DNA from: a virus
Direction: 5' to 3' (one strand)
Length of the DNA: 35,090 nt
Virus record (IMG/VR): IMGVR_UViG_3300047557_003409
Span: 1-35,090 of that record
Numbering within the stretch: the first letter of the stretch is position 1; the number at the start of each line of letters is the position of its first letter. A program made the translations under genes and the position numbers. The notes below the pieces were generated by a model. That model did not search any database, was not told the DNA's origin, and worked only from the letters and a program-made list of their open reading frames with translations. Below are positions 11,272-28,855 of this stretch, one piece after another.

Positions 11272-11276
11272 ATTAA

Positions 11277-11304
11277 AACCGTAGAGAAATCTCTACGGTT
11301 TTTT
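11277..11304 (+). terminator. Rho-independent terminator of the replication block
   Basis: Perfect 10-bp stem AACCGTAGAG (11277-11286) / CTCTACGGTT (11291-11300) with loop AAAT and following TTTT. It separates the replication operon from the late promoter that follows. Confidence 0.92.
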
Positions 11305-11305
11305 C

Positions 11306-11313
11306 TATAAATA
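11306..11313 (+). promoter_or_regulatory. T4-type late promoter TATAAATA
   Basis: Exact late-promoter octamer, 2 bases after the terminator T-run. Its last base is also the A of an in-frame ATG at 11313, so that ATG would lie upstream of the transcript start; this decides for ATG 11337 in the next gene. Confidence 0.85.
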
Positions 11314-12403: not shown

Positions 12404-13612
12404 ATGAAGACTTTTAGACAATTTATAATTGAAGCAAGAGAAACTCAAGCCTCTCAAATGGCGAAGCAGAGAGGTTTGAGAGGAAACGGTCACGGAGACT
12501 GGTATGATGCTACTGGAAAATTAGTAGCTAAAACTGTTGGTGGAGAATTAAAAATATTTTCTGGTCGTGAAGGAAAGGGACCAAAAGAAAAGAAAGATAT
12601 TCAACAACAAATTAGTGAGCCTATAGATAATATCCAACAAGAACCACAAGATAATCAAGAGGTATCAAAAGGTATTGTAATAGTTTTTGGAAGATTTAAT
12701 CCTCCAGGAAAATCTCACGAACAAATGTTAAAATTTGGATATTCTAGAGCAAAAGAAAATAATTATGAGTTTAGAATTTATCCTAGTAGAATACAAGATG
12801 CTGGAACGAATCCGTTAAATCCATCATTAAAAGTTCAATTTATGCAAATGATGTATCCAGATTATGCAGATTATATCTTGGATAGTGAAGATGCTAAAAC
12901 AATTTTTGATGTATTGCAATCTTTGTATAGTGATGGATATGAAGATGTTATAGTTGTAGTAGGTGCAGAAAGACTTGGGGAGTTTCAGTCATTAGCTCAT
13001 AAAGGTGAAGGTCAAGGATATGAGTTTAAAAATATTGAAGTTTTAGCTTCTCCAGGAAAAGACCCAGATAGTGATACTAGTGGAGCTGGTTCTTCTGCCG
13101 CATTAAGAACTTCTGCTGCTGAAGGTAATTATCAAGCTTTTGCTAGTAACCTTCCAGGTAGAATGAAAAAACCTGATAGAGAAGCACTATTTAATGCGGT
13201 TTCTAAATCTATGAAACGGGGGGTAAATGAGAGTATTGAATTGTGGAAGATTGCTCCTGAACTTGATATGGAAACTTTAAGAATGAATTATCGCAAGAAT
13301 AATTTATATCCAGTAGGCTCATTAGTTGAAAATTTAAACACTGGACTAGTTGGCGAAGTAAAAAGAAGGGGAACTAATTATCTTATTTGTGTTACTGAAG
13401 ATGGTTTGATGTTTAAATCTTGGTTACAGAATGTCAGAAATGTACAAGAAGATGTTTATGAAGTGGGTACAGATAAGTATAGAAAATTTCTTCAAAAATT
13501 AACTCCAGGACAGCCAATACAATCTTATAGTTCAATAAAAATTAAAGAAACTATCCCAAAATCAATAAATAAATTAAGACGAGAACTATCTAAAGCTGGG
13601 AAGGTAAGATGA
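12404..13612 (+). CDS. Capsid-targeted nucleotidyltransferase-like protein
   Basis: 402 residues in at least three parts. Residues 1-11, MKTFRQFIIEA, match the capsid-targeting leader of T4 internal proteins (MKTYQEFIAEA in IPIII), with a fitting gp21 protease site I-I-E|A. After a glutamine-rich linker, residues about 90-260 look like the HIGH-superfamily nucleotidyltransferases (NMN/pantetheine adenylyltransferase type): IVIVFGRFNPPGKSHEQML, with GKSHE in place of the usual T-x-GH, VVVVGAERL, and SAALRTSAAEGN in place of the ISSTxIR motif. Residues about 290-350 are a small beta domain (VGSLVENLNTGLVGEV, CVTEDGLMFKSW) common in cyanophage modular proteins. Its substrate is unknown. The leader suggests packaging in the head. 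Confidence 0.75.
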   Translation: MKTFRQFIIEARETQASQMAKQRGLRGNGHGDWYDATGKLVAKTVGGELKIFSGREGKGPKEKKDIQQQISEPIDNIQQEPQDNQEVSKGIVIVFGRFNPPGKSHEQMLKFGYSRAKENNYEFRIYPSRIQDAGTNPLNPSLKVQFMQMMYPDYADYILDSEDAKTIFDVLQSLYSDGYEDVIVVVGAERLGEFQSLAHKGEGQGYEFKNIEVLASPGKDPDSDTSGAGSSAALRTSAAEGNYQAFASNLPGRMKKPDREALFNAVSKSMKRGVNESIELWKIAPELDMETLRMNYRKNNLYPVGSLVENLNTGLVGEVKRRGTNYLICVTEDGLMFKSWLQNVRNVQEDVYEVGTDKYRKFLQKLTPGQPIQSYSSIKIKETIPKSINKLRRELSKAGKVR

Positions 13613-15024
13613 GCTTTATTACAGAAGAAAGTAAGCGGGAAGCTGAGCTTCGTAAAAGAGTTGAAGCCGCTTTTGGTGAAGACCCGGATGCCCCAAAAAC
13701 ATTAAAAAGTAAAGAACAGAGAAAAAGTGAAAGTGCAAAAGAAAAAGCTGAGAGAGCTAGGAAAGATTATGAACAAAAGCAGAAAACTCTTGAATATAAA
13801 AGAGAAAGATTGGAGTGGCAAAAAGAGAGGTCAAAAGAAAAAGATAAGCTAAGAAGGGAAGCTGAAGCTAGAAGAAAAGAAAAAGAAAAATCTTCTGGTG
13901 GTGGAACTTCAAATATAAACATAGAGACTATTAGAGATGAAGATAAAGACCCAACAGCCCAAAGAAAGGCTATTGGTGGTGTAGCTTCATTTGCAAAAGC
14001 TGCTGTAGGTCTTGGTGCTAAGGCAGTAATGGCTTCAGCTAAAAAGAGAAGGGAACGGAAAGAACAAGAACGTCAAGCAGCAGCAGAAAGAGCTAGTGAA
14101 AAACAAAAAGAAAGAACTCAGTCTGCTATGAAACAGTCTAGTAGATTACTTCCTCCAGGAAGAACTTTAGGGCAACAAGCAAGAGCAGAAAAAAATGTAA
14201 GAAAAAGAGAGATTGAAAGACGTGGTGGTACTGTAAGTGAAAGTTTTTCTTGTTGGAGAGAAGATTTTTTATACGAGCTTGGTGAAATGAGAAAGAATAA
14301 GAAATCTAAGAGAGGAGAAGATGATTATATTATAGATGTTATGAAAGGTAAAAATAAAATTACAATAGGACCAGTTATAAAGGAAGAAACTATTGATGAA
14401 GCAAAATCTGTAAGAAGGGCTTTGAGAAAAGCAGTTCAAAAAGTTGAACTTCCAATATTAGCTTTATCATTCGCAGCAAATGCAGCTCAATCTCCTCAAG
14501 CACTAGTTCGTTCGGGACATATAGAAGGTCCTGGTGTGCAATTAATGTCTAGAATGATGTCTAAAAGAAAAGAAGCAGATAGAAATTTAGACAGTGGTAG
14601 AGTGTCTCATCCTGCAAGAAATATAAAAAAGAAAGAAAAAGTTAGTGAAGCTATTGATAAAAAAGAATTACTTAAAGCTATTGTTAGGAAACTTATAGAT
14701 GAGAAAAAGAGAAAAAACTCCTTATTAATTAGAGGGTATATTGGTGAAGCAAAGTATAGTAAAGAAAATTTACAATGTAATAAGCCAAAAGCTGACCCAG
14801 TTGGAAATAGTGAAACTGGAAAATCGCATGTTGTTAAAGCTTGTGAAGGTGGTAAAGAAAAGCTTATTCGTTTTGGTCAAAAAGGGGTAAAAGGTTCTCC
14901 TAAAAAGGAAGGTGAGAGTGAAGCTTATGCGAATAGAAGAAAGAGATTTAAGGCTCGTCACGCAAAGAATATTGCGAAGGGTAAAATGAGTGCAAGCTGG
15001 TGGGCGAATTCGGTTAAATGGTGA
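13609..15024 (+). CDS. Charged modular cyanophage protein with C-terminal KSHVVKACEGG module
   Basis: 471 residues, start overlapping the previous stop. Residues about 1-120 are almost entirely Lys/Arg/Glu and predict a long coiled coil. Then come modules that recur in cyanophage proteins: FSCWREDFLYELGE followed by KNKITIGPVIKE (about 215-260), a hydrophobic segment ELPILALSFAANAAQS, a KKELLKAIVRKLIDEKK helix, and a C-terminal basic module (about 385-471) with KSHVVKACEGGKEKLIRFG and KGKMSASWWANSVKW. The last module is widespread in marine phages, function unknown to me. It probably works with its neighbour, which is transcribed with it; a virion or head-content role is inferred. Confidence 0.7.
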   Translation: MSFITEESKREAELRKRVEAAFGEDPDAPKTLKSKEQRKSESAKEKAERARKDYEQKQKTLEYKRERLEWQKERSKEKDKLRREAEARRKEKEKSSGGGTSNINIETIRDEDKDPTAQRKAIGGVASFAKAAVGLGAKAVMASAKKRRERKEQERQAAAERASEKQKERTQSAMKQSSRLLPPGRTLGQQARAEKNVRKREIERRGGTVSESFSCWREDFLYELGEMRKNKKSKRGEDDYIIDVMKGKNKITIGPVIKEETIDEAKSVRRALRKAVQKVELPILALSFAANAAQSPQALVRSGHIEGPGVQLMSRMMSKRKEADRNLDSGRVSHPARNIKKKEKVSEAIDKKELLKAIVRKLIDEKKRKNSLLIRGYIGEAKYSKENLQCNKPKADPVGNSETGKSHVVKACEGGKEKLIRFGQKGVKGSPKKEGESEAYANRRKRFKARHAKNIAKGKMSASWWANSVKW

Positions 15025-15077
15025 GTAAAAGTAAAGTGGTAATATAAATAAAATAGTATTGCCACTTTACTTTTACT
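15024..15077 (+). promoter_or_regulatory. 22-bp hairpin abutting the HNH start codon
   Basis: Left arm 15024-15045 and right arm 15056-15077 pair over 22 positions (two G-U wobbles) around a 10-nt loop. The right arm ends on the base before the ATG at 15078, so the whole ribosome-binding region of the HNH gene is locked in transcripts that read through from upstream. The late promoter below lies over the loop. Confidence 0.85.
15043..15050 (+). promoter_or_regulatory. Late promoter TATAAATA inside the hairpin loop
   Basis: Exact late octamer spanning the top of the left arm and the loop. A start about 6-7 bases downstream (about 15056-15057) would give a transcript that lacks the left arm and so leaves the HNH start accessible. 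Confidence 0.75.
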
Positions 15078-15716
15078 ATGAGAGAAATAATAGATAATAG
15101 AATAACCAAAATCGGGGATAAATGGATTACGGAATGTTTGAATTGTAAGAAGCAAGTAGCATATACTACTAAAAATCAAGCATTAAGAGTTTTAAATAGA
15201 AAAACTTGTAGAAATTGTGCTCAACATTATAGGAATGTCAATTGTGAAATACCAATTTATAAAAATTTAAATAATAAATGGTGTAAAACTTGTTCTGGAT
15301 GTGGAGTAGAACAAGTATATACTAGAAAAGACCATGCAAAGCAAAGTTATTTGGCTGATAGGAAATGTAGAACTTGTGTAGCTGAAGCGAGGGGATTTTC
15401 AAATAACAGACCAGTTGGAGATAAACAGAGAATATTTAACAAATTTATTAAAACTTCAAAGGCTAGAGATATTGAATGGAAACTCTCATTAGAAGAAATG
15501 TTCCAAACTTATAGTGGAAAATGTTCTTTAACTGGGTGGGATATTGATATTTCATATTCAAATTGTACTGCAAGTTTAGATCGAATAGATAATAGTAAAG
15601 GATATTTACCAGATAATATACAGTGGGTCCATACTATGGTAAATATGTGTAAAAATAAATATGATGAAAAAATATTTTTAAAAATGTGTAAAGATATTGT
15701 AGAAAATATAAAGTAA
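15078..15716 (+). CDS. Free-standing HNH endonuclease with zinc ribbons
   Basis: 212 residues. The N-terminal half has two tandem zinc-ribbon-like units: C20xxC23 with C44xxC47, and C72xxC75 with a later CRTC pair, as in DNA-binding parts of homing endonucleases. The C-terminal half has an HNH/endonuclease-VII-like pattern: GKCSLTGWDI, then SLDRIDNSKGYLPDNIQWV and MVNMCKNKY, in which the D-R-I-D and N-I-Q-W signature is typical of phage HNH enzymes. It is probably a homing endonuclease that spreads by cutting phages lacking it. There is no ribosome site outside the hairpin. Its expression is discussed with the hairpin. Base composition is like its neighbours. Confidence 0.85.
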   Translation: MREIIDNRITKIGDKWITECLNCKKQVAYTTKNQALRVLNRKTCRNCAQHYRNVNCEIPIYKNLNNKWCKTCSGCGVEQVYTRKDHAKQSYLADRKCRTCVAEARGFSNNRPVGDKQRIFNKFIKTSKARDIEWKLSLEEMFQTYSGKCSLTGWDIDISYSNCTASLDRIDNSKGYLPDNIQWVHTMVNMCKNKYDEKIFLKMCKDIVENIK

Positions 15717-15798: not shown

Positions 15799-15984
15799 AT
15801 GACTAAAACAGTACTTCTTGCTTTAGGTGAGAAAATATTTGATACTTTTTGGCAAAGCTGTGAAGTTAAAAAATTTGTAGTACATCTTTTAGAGAAATAT
15901 GCTAAGAGTACAGATAATGATGTTGATAATGTTGTAGTTCGACTAGTTAAAGAAAAGCTTCTTATAAATTGTCCTGAAGCTTGA
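15799..15984 (+). CDS. Small hypothetical protein (61 aa)
   Basis: A 61-residue protein starting MTKTVLLALGEKIFDTFWQS, with an AGGAG site at 15785-15789 and a terminator after it. It has hydrophobic-helical and acidic parts and no recognised domain. The ribosome site and the flanking terminator support it being a real gene. Confidence 0.65.
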   Translation: MTKTVLLALGEKIFDTFWQSCEVKKFVVHLLEKYAKSTDNDVDNVVVRLVKEKLLINCPEA

Positions 15985-16019: not shown

Positions 16020-16047
16020 ATAGGGAAGTAATCACTTCCCTATTTTT
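16020..16047 (+). terminator. Rho-independent terminator
   Basis: Perfect 10-bp stem ATAGGGAAGT (16020-16029) / ACTTCCCTAT (16034-16043), loop AATC, then TTTTT running into the next late promoter. Confidence 0.9.
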
Positions 16048-16054
16048 ATAAATA
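16047..16054 (+). promoter_or_regulatory. Late promoter TATAAATA
   Basis: Exact octamer that shares its first base with the end of the terminator T-run, 37 bases before the virion gene start at 16091. Confidence 0.85.
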
Positions 16055-18943: not shown

Positions 18944-21253
18944 ATGGGTAACGGAACTATTACAGTTAAGAAGCGAAATGGTAATGTAGAACTTCTGGAT
19001 TTAGATAAAATTCATAGAATGGTTGAAGAAGCTTGTGAGGGCCTTTCTGGTGTATCTGCTTCACAGGTAGAAATGTCATCAGGTTTACAATTTTATGATG
19101 GTATTACTACGGCAGATATTCAAGAAATTCTGATCAAATCTGCAGCAGATTTGATTTCTCTAGATGCTCCAAATTATCAATATGTTGCTGCTAGACTTCT
19201 TTTATTTGCAATTCGTAAAAAGATTTATGGTGGACGAATTGATATGCCTAATTTAGAGGAGCATATTCAAAAATGTGTTTCTTTGGGAGTATATGATAAA
19301 GAAATATTTAATTATTATAGTAAAGAAGAATTAGATAAAGCAAATTCATTAATAGATCATCATAGAGATTTTTTGTTTACTTATGCAGGTCTTCGTCAAG
19401 TAGTAGATAAGTATCTGGTTCAAGATAGGACAAATAATATTTTATTTGAAACTCCGCAGTTTATGTATATGTTGATTGCTTTGGTTGGATTTCAAAACTA
19501 TCCAAAAGAAGCTAGAATGTCTTATGTAAAAAGATATTATGATGCTATTAGTAAACATAAGTTGAATATTCCCACACCAATTATGGCTGGGGTTAGGACT
19601 CCTTTGCGGCAATATAGTAGTTGTGTACTAGTAGACGTTGATGATAGTTTGAATAGTATTTTTAGTAGCGATATGGCTATTGGTAGATATGTGGCTCAAA
19701 GGGCAGGTATTGGAATAAATGCTGGTAGAATTCGCGGAATTAATAGTAAAATTCGTGGTGGTGAAGTTACCCATACTGGGGTAATACCATTCCTTAAAAA
19801 ATTTGAAGCTACAGTAAAATGCTGTACTCAAAATGGAATTCGTGGTGGTTCTGCTACTACATTTTTTCCAATTTGGCATAAGGAAATTGAAGATATAATT
19901 GTACTAAAAAATAATAAAGGAACTGAAGATAATAGGGTTCGGAATTTAGATTATGCTATTCAATTTAGTAAAATCTTTTATGAAAGATTCATTAGAAATG
20001 AAAATATAACATTATTCTCTCCAAATGATGTTCCTGGGCTGTATGATAAATTTGGAATGGATGGATTTGATGAGCTTTATATCAAATATGAAAACGATGA
20101 AACTATTCCAAAAAAAGTGGTAAGGGCTCAAGAGTTAGTTGTAGATATTCTAAAAGAAAGGGCAGAAACTGGACGAATTTATATTATGAATATAGACCAT
20201 TCAAATTCTCACAGTCCATTCAAAGAACAAATTGTTATGAGTAACCTTTGTATGGAGATTCTTTTACGAACTGAACCAATTAATCATATTGATGATGAAC
20301 TTGGTAAAATTGCTTTATGTATTTTATCCTGTATTAATGTAGGAGTAGTTAAATCAGACAAAGAGTTAGAAGAACTTTGCGATATAAGTGTTAGATTTCT
20401 AGATGAACTAATAGACTATCAAGAATATCCAGTAAAAGCTGCAGAAATTACTACTAGAGGTAGTAGATCTCTTGGTATTGGTATTATTGGTTTAGCTCAT
20501 TATCTAGCTAAACTTGGACTAAAATATGATGACCCAAAAGCTTGGAGTGCTACTCACGGATTGAGTGAAAGTCTTCAGTATTATCTACTAAAAGCTTCAA
20601 ATCAACTTGCAAAAGAGAAAGGAGCGTGTGGTAATTTTCACACCACCAAATATGCCGAAGGAATTCTTCCAATTGATACTTACAAAAAAGAAATCGATGA
20701 AATTTGTAATGATGGATATCAGCATGATTGGGAAGAATTACGTCAAGAAATTTTAAAATATGGATTACGTCATACTACACTCTCCGCCCAACCCCCAACA
20801 GAGAGTTCATCAGTTTGTTGCAACGCTACTAATGGAATTGAACCCCCAAGAGACTATCTTTCTATTAAACAATCTAAAAAAGGAACTCTAAAACAAATTG
20901 TCCCACAATACTCTAAATTGAAGCACTACTACACACTTCTTTGGGATATGAAATCCAATGAAGGATACATTAATATTGTTGCAATGATGCAAAAATTCTT
21001 CGATCAAGCTATCAGTGCAAATTGGAGCTACAATCCAGAAAATTATGCAAATAAAGAAGTTCCAATTAGTGTTATTGTGAATGATTTTCTCTCTTGCTAT
21101 AAGAATGGACACAAGACTGCCTATTATCATAATACTTATGATGGGAAGACTGATGATGTTTCTGCAGAAAAAACTAATGATATTTCTCAATTAATAAATG
21201 AAATACTTACATCTAATGTTGATGAAACAAGTTGCGATAGTTGTTCGGTTTAA
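18944..21253 (+). CDS. nrdA: NrdA, class I ribonucleotide reductase large subunit
   Basis: Reduces ribonucleoside diphosphates to dNDPs with NrdB. An N-terminal ATP-cone (TVKKRNGNVELLDLDKIHRM) implies allosteric control by ATP/dATP. Catalytic residues: C227 in YSSCVLVD, the SNLCMEI loop with C436 and E438, the third cysteine in ALCILSCINVG, and the tyrosine pair in TAYYHNTYDGK. The extreme C-terminus has a CDSC shuttle pair that takes electrons from thioredoxin/glutaredoxin. 769 aa is normal. ATG 18944 is preferred to 18911 because AAGGAG at 18927-18932 precedes it and the upstream part overlaps gp61. An HNH gene separates it from nrdB. Confidence 0.95.
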   Translation: MGNGTITVKKRNGNVELLDLDKIHRMVEEACEGLSGVSASQVEMSSGLQFYDGITTADIQEILIKSAADLISLDAPNYQYVAARLLLFAIRKKIYGGRIDMPNLEEHIQKCVSLGVYDKEIFNYYSKEELDKANSLIDHHRDFLFTYAGLRQVVDKYLVQDRTNNILFETPQFMYMLIALVGFQNYPKEARMSYVKRYYDAISKHKLNIPTPIMAGVRTPLRQYSSCVLVDVDDSLNSIFSSDMAIGRYVAQRAGIGINAGRIRGINSKIRGGEVTHTGVIPFLKKFEATVKCCTQNGIRGGSATTFFPIWHKEIEDIIVLKNNKGTEDNRVRNLDYAIQFSKIFYERFIRNENITLFSPNDVPGLYDKFGMDGFDELYIKYENDETIPKKVVRAQELVVDILKERAETGRIYIMNIDHSNSHSPFKEQIVMSNLCMEILLRTEPINHIDDELGKIALCILSCINVGVVKSDKELEELCDISVRFLDELIDYQEYPVKAAEITTRGSRSLGIGIIGLAHYLAKLGLKYDDPKAWSATHGLSESLQYYLLKASNQLAKEKGACGNFHTTKYAEGILPIDTYKKEIDEICNDGYQHDWEELRQEILKYGLRHTTLSAQPPTESSSVCCNATNGIEPPRDYLSIKQSKKGTLKQIVPQYSKLKHYYTLLWDMKSNEGYINIVAMMQKFFDQAISANWSYNPENYANKEVPISVIVNDFLSCYKNGHKTAYYHNTYDGKTDDVSAEKTNDISQLINEILTSNVDETSCDSCSV

Positions 21254-21308
21254 TTATGTAAAATATAACTTGTAAAATATACAGATAGTTATTAGATATG
21301 GTAAATCT

Positions 21309-22022
21309 ATGGACTATAAAAAACATTATAATTTATTAATAGAAAAAGCACTCAATATTTCTATTGAGTGCTATACTGAACTACATCATATTGTTCCAAA
21401 ATGTTTGGGTGGATCTGACGAAAAATCTAACCTGATAAAATTAACTCCAGAAGAACATTTTGTTGCACACAAACTTCTTACTAAGATATATCCAAATGAT
21501 ATAAAGCTAATATATGCTTTTAATTTTATGTCTACTCCTGTCTCTAAAAGAAATTTGAATAATAAATCATTTGGATTTGTTAGAAAAGAGATTTCTAAAT
21601 TGATGCAAGGTGATTTAAATCCTATGAGGAGATTTCCAGAAAAAAATTATTTTCGTGGAAAATTTGGAAAATCTCATCCATTTTACGGTAAAACACATAC
21701 AGAAGAAGAGAAAAAAAGAATAAGTGAGCGTATGAAAGATAATAATCCCTGCAAAGGATTATCTGCCTGGGAACATCCTAGATGTGATGAATATAATAAA
21801 AAAATATGGTTTTTTGCAGATGATTATTATAATGAATGGAAAATTACAAATCAATCATATTGTGCTTTATCTAAAAAATTTGGTTATAAAAAATATACTG
21901 CTTCACACATTAATATGATTAAAAAATTTAAATCTGGCTGGATACCAAATCAAGATCCAAAGTGGCTAAAATTTAAACACTCATTTTCTAAAAATATAAA
22001 TTTATTTCATAATAATTTTTAA
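21309..22022 (+). CDS. HNH homing endonuclease between nrdA and nrdB
   Basis: 237 residues, unrelated to ribonucleotide reductase. The N-terminal HNH motif reads ELHHIVPKCLGGSDEKSN then TPEEHFVAH, giving H26/H27, N41 and H50. The central part holds NUMOD3-like modules (NPMRRFPEKNYFRGKFG, GKSHPFYGKTHTEEEKKRIS), DNA-binding helices typical of homing endonucleases, and a helix-turn-helix-like tail. T4 carries a different free-standing endonuclease, mobE, at this same nrdA-nrdB junction. Start ATG 21309 has no good ribosome site. A 10-bp inverted repeat lies at codons 13-22. Ends 8 bases before nrdB. Confidence 0.88.
   Translation: MDYKKHYNLLIEKALNISIECYTELHHIVPKCLGGSDEKSNLIKLTPEEHFVAHKLLTKIYPNDIKLIYAFNFMSTPVSKRNLNNKSFGFVRKEISKLMQGDLNPMRRFPEKNYFRGKFGKSHPFYGKTHTEEEKKRISERMKDNNPCKGLSAWEHPRCDEYNKKIWFFADDYYNEWKITNQSYCALSKKFGYKKYTASHINMIKKFKSGWIPNQDPKWLKFKHSFSKNINLFHNNF
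21347..21372 (+). repeat. Perfect 10-bp inverted repeat inside the HNH start region
   Basis: AGCACTCAAT (21347-21356) pairs with ATTGAGTGCT (21363-21372) around a 6-nt loop. It is 38 bases into the HNH coding sequence and encodes KALNISIECY-type residues, so it may be coincidental or an RNA structure controlling expression. Confidence 0.5.
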
Positions 22023-23185: not shown

Positions 23186-23208
23186 GGGGCTAAATAAGCC
23201 CCTTTTTT
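23186..23208 (+). terminator. Rho-independent terminator after nrdB
   Basis: Stem GGGGCT (23186-23191) / AGCCCC (23197-23202), loop AAATA, then TTTTTT. Confidence 0.92.
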
Positions 23209-23216
23209 GTTGCTTT

Positions 23217-23224
23217 TATAAATA
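23217..23224 (+). promoter_or_regulatory. Late promoter TATAAATA
   Basis: Exact octamer 8 bases after the nrdB terminator and 24 bases upstream of the start at 23248. Confidence 0.85.
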
Positions 23225-28330: not shown

Positions 28331-28419
28331 GATTTAAATAATTCTATAGACTGTCCGAAGGACAATCCCGAAGGGATTTAATGAAGCCTAGATAAAGAGA
28401 CTATAGAACGATTTAAATT
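28331..28419 (+). promoter_or_regulatory. Structured leader holding the GIY-YIG start codon
   Basis: Left arm 28331-28349 pairs with right arm 28401-28419 (17 pairs, two mismatches, one G-U), with two GAA-looped hairpins inside: TGTCC/GGACA (28352-28364) and ATCCC/GGGAT (28366-28376). The TTG start at 28418 is partly inside the outer stem. A TTTAAATA late-like octamer (28333-28340) lies in the left arm. Confidence 0.6.
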
Positions 28420-28855
28420 GGAACAAGAATATGAAAACCCTTGGATATATCTTGGAGACTCTTTTACTTCAAATAATATTCAAGATTATTTTGGTTTTGT
28501 TTATTGTATCACGAATTCTGTTAATGGTAAAAAATATATTGGTAGAAAAAACTTTTATTCTTATAGAAAGCCTAAAGGTAAATCAAGAAGAGTAAAGCAA
28601 TTTAGTAACTGGAAAGATTATTATGGTTCTTGTGAAGAATTAAAAGAAGATGTCAAATTATTGGGTAAAGAAAATTTTAAAAGAGAAATATTATCTCTTC
28701 ATAAAACACAAGGAAAATTAAATTATGAAGAAACCAGGCAGTTGTTTTTGAATAATGTTTTGACTGAATCGATGGAAAATGGAGAACCTGCTTTTTATAA
28801 TTCTCAAATTCTTGGGAGATATTATTTAAAAGATTACTTCCAAAAACTTGATTAA
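28418..28855 (+). CDS. GIY-YIG endonuclease
   Basis: 145 residues from TTG 28418; the frame is also open back to 28388 without an ATG. The GIY-YIG domain is complete: FGFVYCITNSVNGKKYIGRK with the first two motif strands, then YYGSCEELKEDVKLLG and NFKREILSLHK, the conserved Arg and catalytic-type Glu in NYEETRQLF, and a C-terminal YNSQILGRYYL. The opening NPWIYLGDSF matches small phage GIY-YIG proteins that stand alone. It is probably a mobile (homing-type) nuclease. The upstream stretch includes residues DKETIERFK that look protein-like, so the real start may be earlier. Its promoter and leader are described above. Confidence 0.85.
   Translation: MEQEYENPWIYLGDSFTSNNIQDYFGFVYCITNSVNGKKYIGRKNFYSYRKPKGKSRRVKQFSNWKDYYGSCEELKEDVKLLGKENFKREILSLHKTQGKLNYEETRQLFLNNVLTESMENGEPAFYNSQILGRYYLKDYFQKLD

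What the first reader, a model, noticed from the sequence alone, without database searches (positions are those of the whole stretch)
15024..15716. HNH gene switched by a late promoter in the loop of a start-blocking hairpin
Seen: a 22-bp stem (15024-15045/15056-15077) ends on the base before the HNH ATG (15078), and an exact TATAAATA late promoter (15043-15050) sits over its loop. Known: in T4, the intron endonuclease genes (for example I-TevI in td) are silent in read-through early mRNA because a hairpin hides the ribosome site, and are expressed from a late promoter whose transcript begins inside the hairpin. Inferred: the same solution is used here for a free-standing, non-intron HNH gene, so early or read-through mRNA cannot express the nuclease.
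Basis: partly seen in the sequence, partly recalled or inferred. Interest (0 to 1): 0.78.

Follow-up and report, generated by a model that had tools for sequence, protein, structure and literature searches.

The report
Late-promoter hairpin before cyanophage mobile nuclease
A T4-type cyanophage carries a mobile DNA-cutting-enzyme gene that brings its own late-infection start signal inside a hairpin which probably keeps the enzyme silent on longer messages; the same trick is already known in T4 and Aeromonas phage Aeh1, but here the hairpin looks tuned to where the gene has landed.

Summary
A 22-bp stem (15024-15045/15056-15077) fills the gap between the upstream stop codon and the HNH ATG at 15078. 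It is the best inverted repeat of the window (z -8 to -9.5). A TATAAATA overlaps its loop and is one of five intergenic copies where 0.64 is expected. The projected late start (~15056) is the first base of the right arm.

Empty and occupied allele pairs show that promoter, hairpin and HNH gene came in together, after the conserved ...KW end of a phrog_7595-domain gene. Related elements sit at two other sites in T4-like contigs. TATAAATA is conserved in 3/3; the hairpin is not: extreme in the window (replication cluster), weak in L070, absent as an excess in L145 (both among late structural genes). No covariation could be shown. There is no Shine-Dalgarno to hide, so "start-blocking" is inferred from geometry.

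The stated novelty fails: a hairpin plus late promoter on a free-standing HNH gene is published for Aeh1 mobE, and implicated for T4 segB. The newer point is that relatives in non-T4-like phages have an overlapping start and a sigma70 -10-like box where T4-like ones have TATAAATA.

The parts
13609..15024 (+). Upstream gene, 471 aa; its C-terminal ~90 aa are the phrog_7595 domain ending ...GKMSASWWANSVKW*
   Evidence: (phrog_7595 E 4e-28, residues 381-471)
15021..15022 (+). 5' boundary of the inserted element: it follows the Lys-Trp codons that end the upstream gene
   Evidence: occupied window against empty L264; same boundary in L145 (occupied) against L185 (empty)
15024..15045 (+). Left arm of the 22-bp stem; its first base is the last base of the upstream stop codon
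15043..15050 (+). T4-type late promoter TATAAATA, in the arm/loop junction; identical in L070 and L145
   Evidence: late-promoter identity in cyanophages from PMC2984593
15046..15055 (+). 10-nt loop
15056..15077 (+). Right arm; its first base is also the projected late transcription start (TATAAATA at -13 to -6), so the late leader would be right arm only, 22 nt, without Shine-Dalgarno
   Evidence: start position inferred from T4 late-promoter spacing (general knowledge)
15078..15716 (+). HNH-type nuclease, 212 aa, zinc-finger-like CxxC pairs plus CxLTGW...ASLDRIDxxKGYxxxNIQWVHxMVNMCKNKY
   Evidence: model mean pLDDT 83, best PDB match PacI HNH enzyme prob 0.98 but E 0.03
15799..15984 (+). Next gene (61 aa), directly downstream of the phrog_7595 gene in the empty allele L264
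11275..11313 (+). Terminator-like hairpin with T6 (11275-11302) followed by TATAAATA (11306-11313): likely start of the unit that reads through 13609-15024
16020..16054 (+). Terminator-like hairpin with T-run followed by TATAAATA (16047-16054): the ordinary late-promoter layout of this phage, for contrast
   Evidence: also in L264

Best explanation
This is a free-standing, homing-type HNH nuclease element inserted right behind the conserved 3' end of a phrog_7595-domain gene in a T4-like cyanophage. It carries its own late promoter. Because no terminator was found between the upstream gene and it, every mRNA of the upstream gene should also contain the HNH frame. On those RNAs the 22-bp hairpin buries the whole leader up to the AUG, and 30S loading is largely blocked. 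When late sigma (gp55-type) is active, RNA starting at ~15056 has only the right arm, cannot form the hairpin, and is translated from a short SD-less leader. Shown: anatomy, stability, insertion, and conservation of the promoter in three elements at three sites. Inferred: the transcription start, the translational block, and homing activity.
For: Hairpin and promoter are far beyond chance. The projected start falls on the first base of the right arm. Predicted start-region accessibility (-18 to +12) rises from 0.37 to 0.55 when the left arm is removed. Empty/occupied pairs: L185 against L145 (250-bp left flank 91%, 400-bp right flank 96% identical) and L264 against the window. TATAAATA and left-half sequence are kept in L070 and L145. 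Hairpin strength follows location: strongest where the element sits among replication genes (window: gp41, MazG, then gp61 primase and nrdA, identified here from sequence), weak or absent where it sits among late structural genes (L070, L145). The same mechanism is reported for I-TevI and Aeh1 mobE (PMC2988022, PMC3014915).
Against: Only three T4-like copies are available; no compensatory base change; L145 folds no better than its shuffles (z -0.5). No SD is present to be hidden. Late reads from the 11306 TATAAATA would also carry the hairpin, so the switch would be by transcript start, not strictly early against late. A terminator-like hairpin at 11275-11302 may stop early transcripts before they reach the gene. 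The accessibility change is modest by energy model.
Confidence: 0.58

Rival explanations
1. Bridge rather than block: the hairpin brings the upstream UGA next to the HNH AUG (15024 pairs with 15077, AUG at 15078), so ribosomes finishing the upstream gene re-initiate on the HNH frame. The late promoter adds a second source of message.
For: Stop and start are flush with the two ends of the stem. In most relatives outside T4-like phages the HNH start overlaps the upstream gene by 17-38 nt, the layout of coupled genes. T4 genes 25 and 38 use a hairpin to shorten SD-AUG spacing (PMC3014915).
Against: A terminating ribosome covers the foot of the left arm and would open it. L145 has the same layout without a strong stem. 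The published HEG cases with this promoter placement are repressive.
Confidence: 0.17
2. Only the late promoter matters. The perfect stem is a recent palindrome made by template switching during replication, or a 3'-end protector of the upstream mRNA, without a role in HNH translation.
For: Promoter half conserved in 3/3, right half variable. Hairpin weak or absent in relatives, no covariation. Repair of quasi-palindromes to perfect ones is a known replication error (general knowledge).
Against: A perfect stem ending exactly at the AUG, with the late start at the base of the right arm, is an unlikely accident. It occurs where read-through should be most harmful.
Confidence: 0.2
3. DNA-level operator: the palindrome over the promoter is a binding site for the HNH protein itself (autorepression as for I-TevI), not an RNA device.
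For: I-TevI represses its late promoter through an operator resembling its homing site (PMC2988022). The GTxAAxTGGTxATA-like sequence at the upstream gene end recurs over the promoter in the window, L070 and L145.
Against: The repeat is short and partly set by Lys-Trp-stop codons. HNH homing enzymes usually bind asymmetric sites. No binding evidence.
Confidence: 0.05

Closest known systems
Aeromonas phage Aeh1 mobE (free-standing HNH homing gene; RBS-sequestering hairpin and late promoter)
   Same: Free-standing HNH gene in a T4-like phage; hairpin over the start region; late promoter placed so that late RNA lacks the 5' arm (PMC2988022, PMC3014915).
   Different: mobE lies inside nrdA and has an SD that is hidden; here the element follows a phrog_7595-domain gene, has no SD, and the stem spans stop to start exactly. 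No sequence comparison with mobE was run; in tblastn against phage records no Aeromonas phage appears among the 40 hits listed of 47.
T4 I-TevI / I-TevII / I-TevIII leaders
   Same: Hairpin that forms only on longer RNA plus middle or late promoter at the hairpin.
   Different: Intron-encoded; SD present ~8 nt before AUG; for I-TevI the block also protects intron splicing.
T4 segB; T4 lysozyme gene e and soc leaders
   Same: Inhibitory stem at the start of a non-intron gene that is expressed late; late promoter at the stem for segB and e.
   Different: GIY-YIG nuclease or ordinary phage genes, not this HNH family.
Free-standing cyanophage homing endonucleases (S-PM2 psbA-region enzyme and gp17-gp18 region endonucleases)
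   Same: Free-standing nuclease genes in T4-like cyanophages, some next to gp17 (PMC3037559).
   Different: No hairpin/late-promoter leader seen in the passages read; different target region; homology not tested.

Membership tests
Hairpin-plus-late-promoter regulated homing genes (I-TevI / mobE type) | Stable RNA stem covering the translation start on long transcripts | tested here: met
   MFE -28.2, z -8 to -9.5, stem ends one base before AUG
Hairpin-plus-late-promoter regulated homing genes (I-TevI / mobE type) | Shine-Dalgarno sequestered in the stem | tested here: not met
   no SD-like sequence in the 22 nt before ATG; none in L070 or L145 either
Hairpin-plus-late-promoter regulated homing genes (I-TevI / mobE type) | Late promoter placed so that late RNA lacks the 5' arm | tested here: met
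   TATAAATA 15043-15050, projected +1 ~15056; start itself not mapped
Hairpin-plus-late-promoter regulated homing genes (I-TevI / mobE type) | Translation repressed by the 5' arm | not testable with these tools
   needs reporter or in vitro translation
Hairpin-plus-late-promoter regulated homing genes (I-TevI / mobE type) | Structure conserved in related phages | tested here: inconclusive
   three sequences, 0 compensatory pairs, z -9.5/-2.8/-0.5
Free-standing homing endonuclease gene | Present/absent between otherwise matching genomes at one site | tested here: met
   L145 against L185, window against L264/L263
Free-standing homing endonuclease gene | HNH or GIY-YIG nuclease fold | tested here: met
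   PHROG endonuclease families down to 2e-20; model's top PDB match is PacI HNH enzyme, prob 0.98 but E 0.03; no Pfam family
Free-standing homing endonuclease gene | Cuts the empty allele and is inherited preferentially | not testable with these tools
   needs cleavage and mixed-infection assays
T4-type late promoter | TATAAATA upstream of genes in a T4-like phage, beyond chance | tested here: met
   5 intergenic against 0.64 expected; gp43 nearest to Synechococcus T4-like phages, ~57%
Intrinsic terminator | GC-rich stem followed by U-run | tested here: not met
   stem is followed by ATGAGAGAAATAAT; not among terminator-like sites

The most novel reading that the evidence does not exclude
One HNH homing lineage, always landing behind the same phrog_7595 gene end, carries a promoter matched to the resident phage's transcription system: a sigma70 -10-like box with a coupled, overlapping start in non-T4-like phages, and a T4 late promoter in T4-like phages. 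In T4-like genomes it adds a start-blocking hairpin whose strength is tuned to whether it sits in an early-type or a late region. The block acts without any Shine-Dalgarno.
Probability: 0.3. Interest if true: 0.62.

Novelty: new member of a known kind. Interest (0 to 1): 0.42.

Why it matters
If true, it extends the T4/Aeh1 solution for keeping a homing nuclease silent until late infection to cyanophages and to an unrelated target gene. It gives a natural series (one element, three genome positions, three hairpin strengths, plus non-T4-like relatives with another promoter type) in which to test how mobile nuclease genes fit their expression to a host genome. It also offers an SD-less case of hairpin control.

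Tried and rejected
(1) Intrinsic terminator: rejected, no U-run on either side. (2) TATAAATA as a chance AT-rich word: rejected by strand and position (5/6 intergenic), though the raw count alone would not show it. (3) Promoter and hairpin as part of the original junction: rejected. None of the other phrog_7595-domain loci read has TATAAATA within 90 bp after the stop, and the empty alleles lack the leader. (4) Covariation test: no power, three sequences, 0 compensatory pairs. (5) More T4-like copies: one DNA-pattern scan and two HNH-protein scans of viral contigs gave only L070/L001 and L145/L002/L040. Host genome contigs gave none. (6) Conserved RNA fold in the non-T4-like leaders: none supported. 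(7) Rfam: no match. (8) The primary mobE hairpin and segB papers are not in the library, so those claims rest on two reviews.

Full report
OBSERVATION. The hairpin is real and exact. Arms 15024-15045 and 15056-15077 pair over 22 consecutive positions (two G-U) around a 10-nt loop. The left arm starts on the last base of the upstream TGA and the right arm ends one base before the HNH ATG. MFE is -28.2 kcal/mol, z -8.1 and z -9.5 on the tight segment, with no shuffle as stable. It is the best local inverted repeat in the window and stands alone in a sliding scan (23 pairs against at most 17 elsewhere). TATAAATA 15043-15050 is exact. Its raw count in the window is what chance gives (6 against 7.9), but all copies are on the coding strand and 5 of 6 are intergenic, against 0.64 expected. 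Three of the other four intergenic copies directly follow terminator-like hairpins (11275-11302, 16020-16043, and the one before 23217). Only the HNH copy lies within its hairpin, and that hairpin has no U-run, so it is not a terminator. Among 367 distinct TATAAATA contexts in all loci fetched, none other has an enclosing stem longer than 15.

THE GENOME. The window is a fragment of a T4-like cyanophage: gp43 is nearest to Synechococcus T4-like phages at ~57%, a porin-like gene with an SLH domain is present, and the gene order gp45-gp44-gp62-regA-gp43-uvsX-gp41-...-gp61-nrdA-nrdB was read from the ORF list (names by my own recognition except where scanned). NATAAATA/TATAAATA is the accepted late promoter of cyanomyoviruses (PMC2984593).

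THE ELEMENT. The 212-aa product matches PHROG endonuclease and HNH families (best 2e-20). It has no Pfam match. A structure model (mean pLDDT 83) is weakly nearest to PacI and other HNH enzymes. Related loci in viral contigs place the gene directly behind a gene ending ...GKxSAxxWxxxxKW in 28 of the 29 junctions read; for the other (L011, only 79 bases upstream) the frame test picked a wrong frame, though its sequence matches L013. That domain (phrog_7595) is very common in phages and normally ends at KW-stop with some other gene following. Two comparisons show insertion. L145 (HNH present) and L185 (absent) share a 250-bp left flank at 91% and a 400-bp right flank at 96% identity, the HNH element lying between the KW codons and the terminase gene gp17. 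L264/L263 carry the window's own gene order (nucleotidyltransferase, phrog_7595 gene, 61-aa gene, TATAAATA, next gene) without the HNH. Leader and promoter are absent from the empty alleles, so they belong to the element.

CONSERVATION. T4-like copies were found at three different sites: window (replication cluster), L145 (before gp17), L070 (behind a gp16-like gene and before a tail-type gene). The first ~28 nt of the leader, TATAAATA included, are nearly identical in all three; the second half varies. Hairpin z-scores are -9.5, -2.8 (L070) and -0.5 (L145). The 22-pair structure has 80% of cells paired but no compensatory change, so covariation neither supports nor excludes it. The promoter is thus the shared feature and the extreme hairpin is particular to this window. 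That it is strongest in the copy lying among replication genes fits a need to silence read-through mRNA, but three cases are an anecdote.

MECHANISM. By T4 spacing the late start falls at ~15056, the first base of the right arm. The late leader would be 22 nt, unable to form the stem, and without a Shine-Dalgarno. Most starts in this window lack a clear SD. No terminator was detected on the + strand between 11313 and 15024, so any mRNA of the 13609-15024 gene should enter the HNH frame carrying the full hairpin. Whether such RNA is early is not known: a terminator-like hairpin and a TATAAATA at 11275-11313 suggest the unit may itself be late. The switch is therefore better described as 'own start on, read-through off' than as 'late on, early off'. 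The main rivals are a bridge that couples the HNH start to the upstream stop, and a hairpin without function.

RELATIVES OUTSIDE T4-LIKE PHAGES. In the other loci (GC 0.37-0.56, few or no TATAAATA, several with portal or terminase-like ORFs of short-tailed or other phage types by my reading) the upstream frame usually runs 18-26 codons past KW and overlaps the HNH start by 17-38 nt, which suggests translational coupling. At a fixed place 2 nt after the KW codons, 16 of 17 leaders have a sigma70 -10-like hexamer (5-6 of 6: TATACT, TATAAT, CATAAT), 29-35 nt before the ATG, without a good -35. It uses the Ile codon ATA in all 16, although ATA is only 14% of Ile codons in those loci. Shared ancestry weakens this count. 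It suggests that the cassette carries its own promoter in both groups, of a type matched to the phage. This was not part of the finding and is the most interesting lead.

COMPARISON. The case here differs in target gene, phage group, lack of SD, and the flush stop-to-start stem. It works like that system; membership fails on one listed feature (sequestered SD), and repression is untested.

VERDICT. Observation confirmed; interpretation partly supported; a new member of a known kind, with a testable evolutionary series attached.

Noticed in passing
L147, L006, L148, L149, L150, L152, L154, L155, L157, L160, L162, L163, L166, L169, L170, L171: 29-35 nt before the HNH ATG: Sigma70 -10-like hexamer (TATACT/TATAAT/CATAAT) at a fixed place in the HNH leader of 16 of 17 non-T4-like relatives, with the rare Ile codon ATA invariant; possible element-borne host-type promoter inside a coding overlap.
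   Followed up: partly
L003, L004, L006-L010, L012-L024, L027-L029 (junction before HNH): Where the HNH gene is present outside T4-like phages, the upstream protein usually lacks the normal KW-stop and has an 18-26 residue hydrophobic tail overlapping the HNH start by 17-38 nt.
   Followed up: partly
window 21253-21309 and L265:11889-11918: The nrdA/nrdB HNH gene of the window has no TATAAATA in its leader, but its counterpart in Synechococcus phage DSL-LC02 has one about 29 nt before the annotated start.
   Followed up: partly
window 11275-11313, 16020-16054, 23190-23224: Recurrent layout: terminator-like hairpin with T-run immediately followed by TATAAATA.
   Followed up: partly
window 28340-28410: Stretch before the SegE-like GIY-YIG gene with short complementary pieces (TCCGAAGGACAATCCCGAAGGGATT...GACTATAG) reminiscent of a group I intron remnant; Rfam found no match even at E 1.
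   Followed up: yes
window 28418-28855: SegE-type GIY-YIG gene (Pfam SegE_GIY-YIG, 1e-52): with 15078 and the NUMOD3 gene at 21309, three nuclease genes of homing type in 35 kb.
   Followed up: no
L188, L249: Distant HNH relatives (34-35% identity) also directly behind the phrog_7595 KW end, suggesting a long association of this nuclease family with that site.
   Followed up: no
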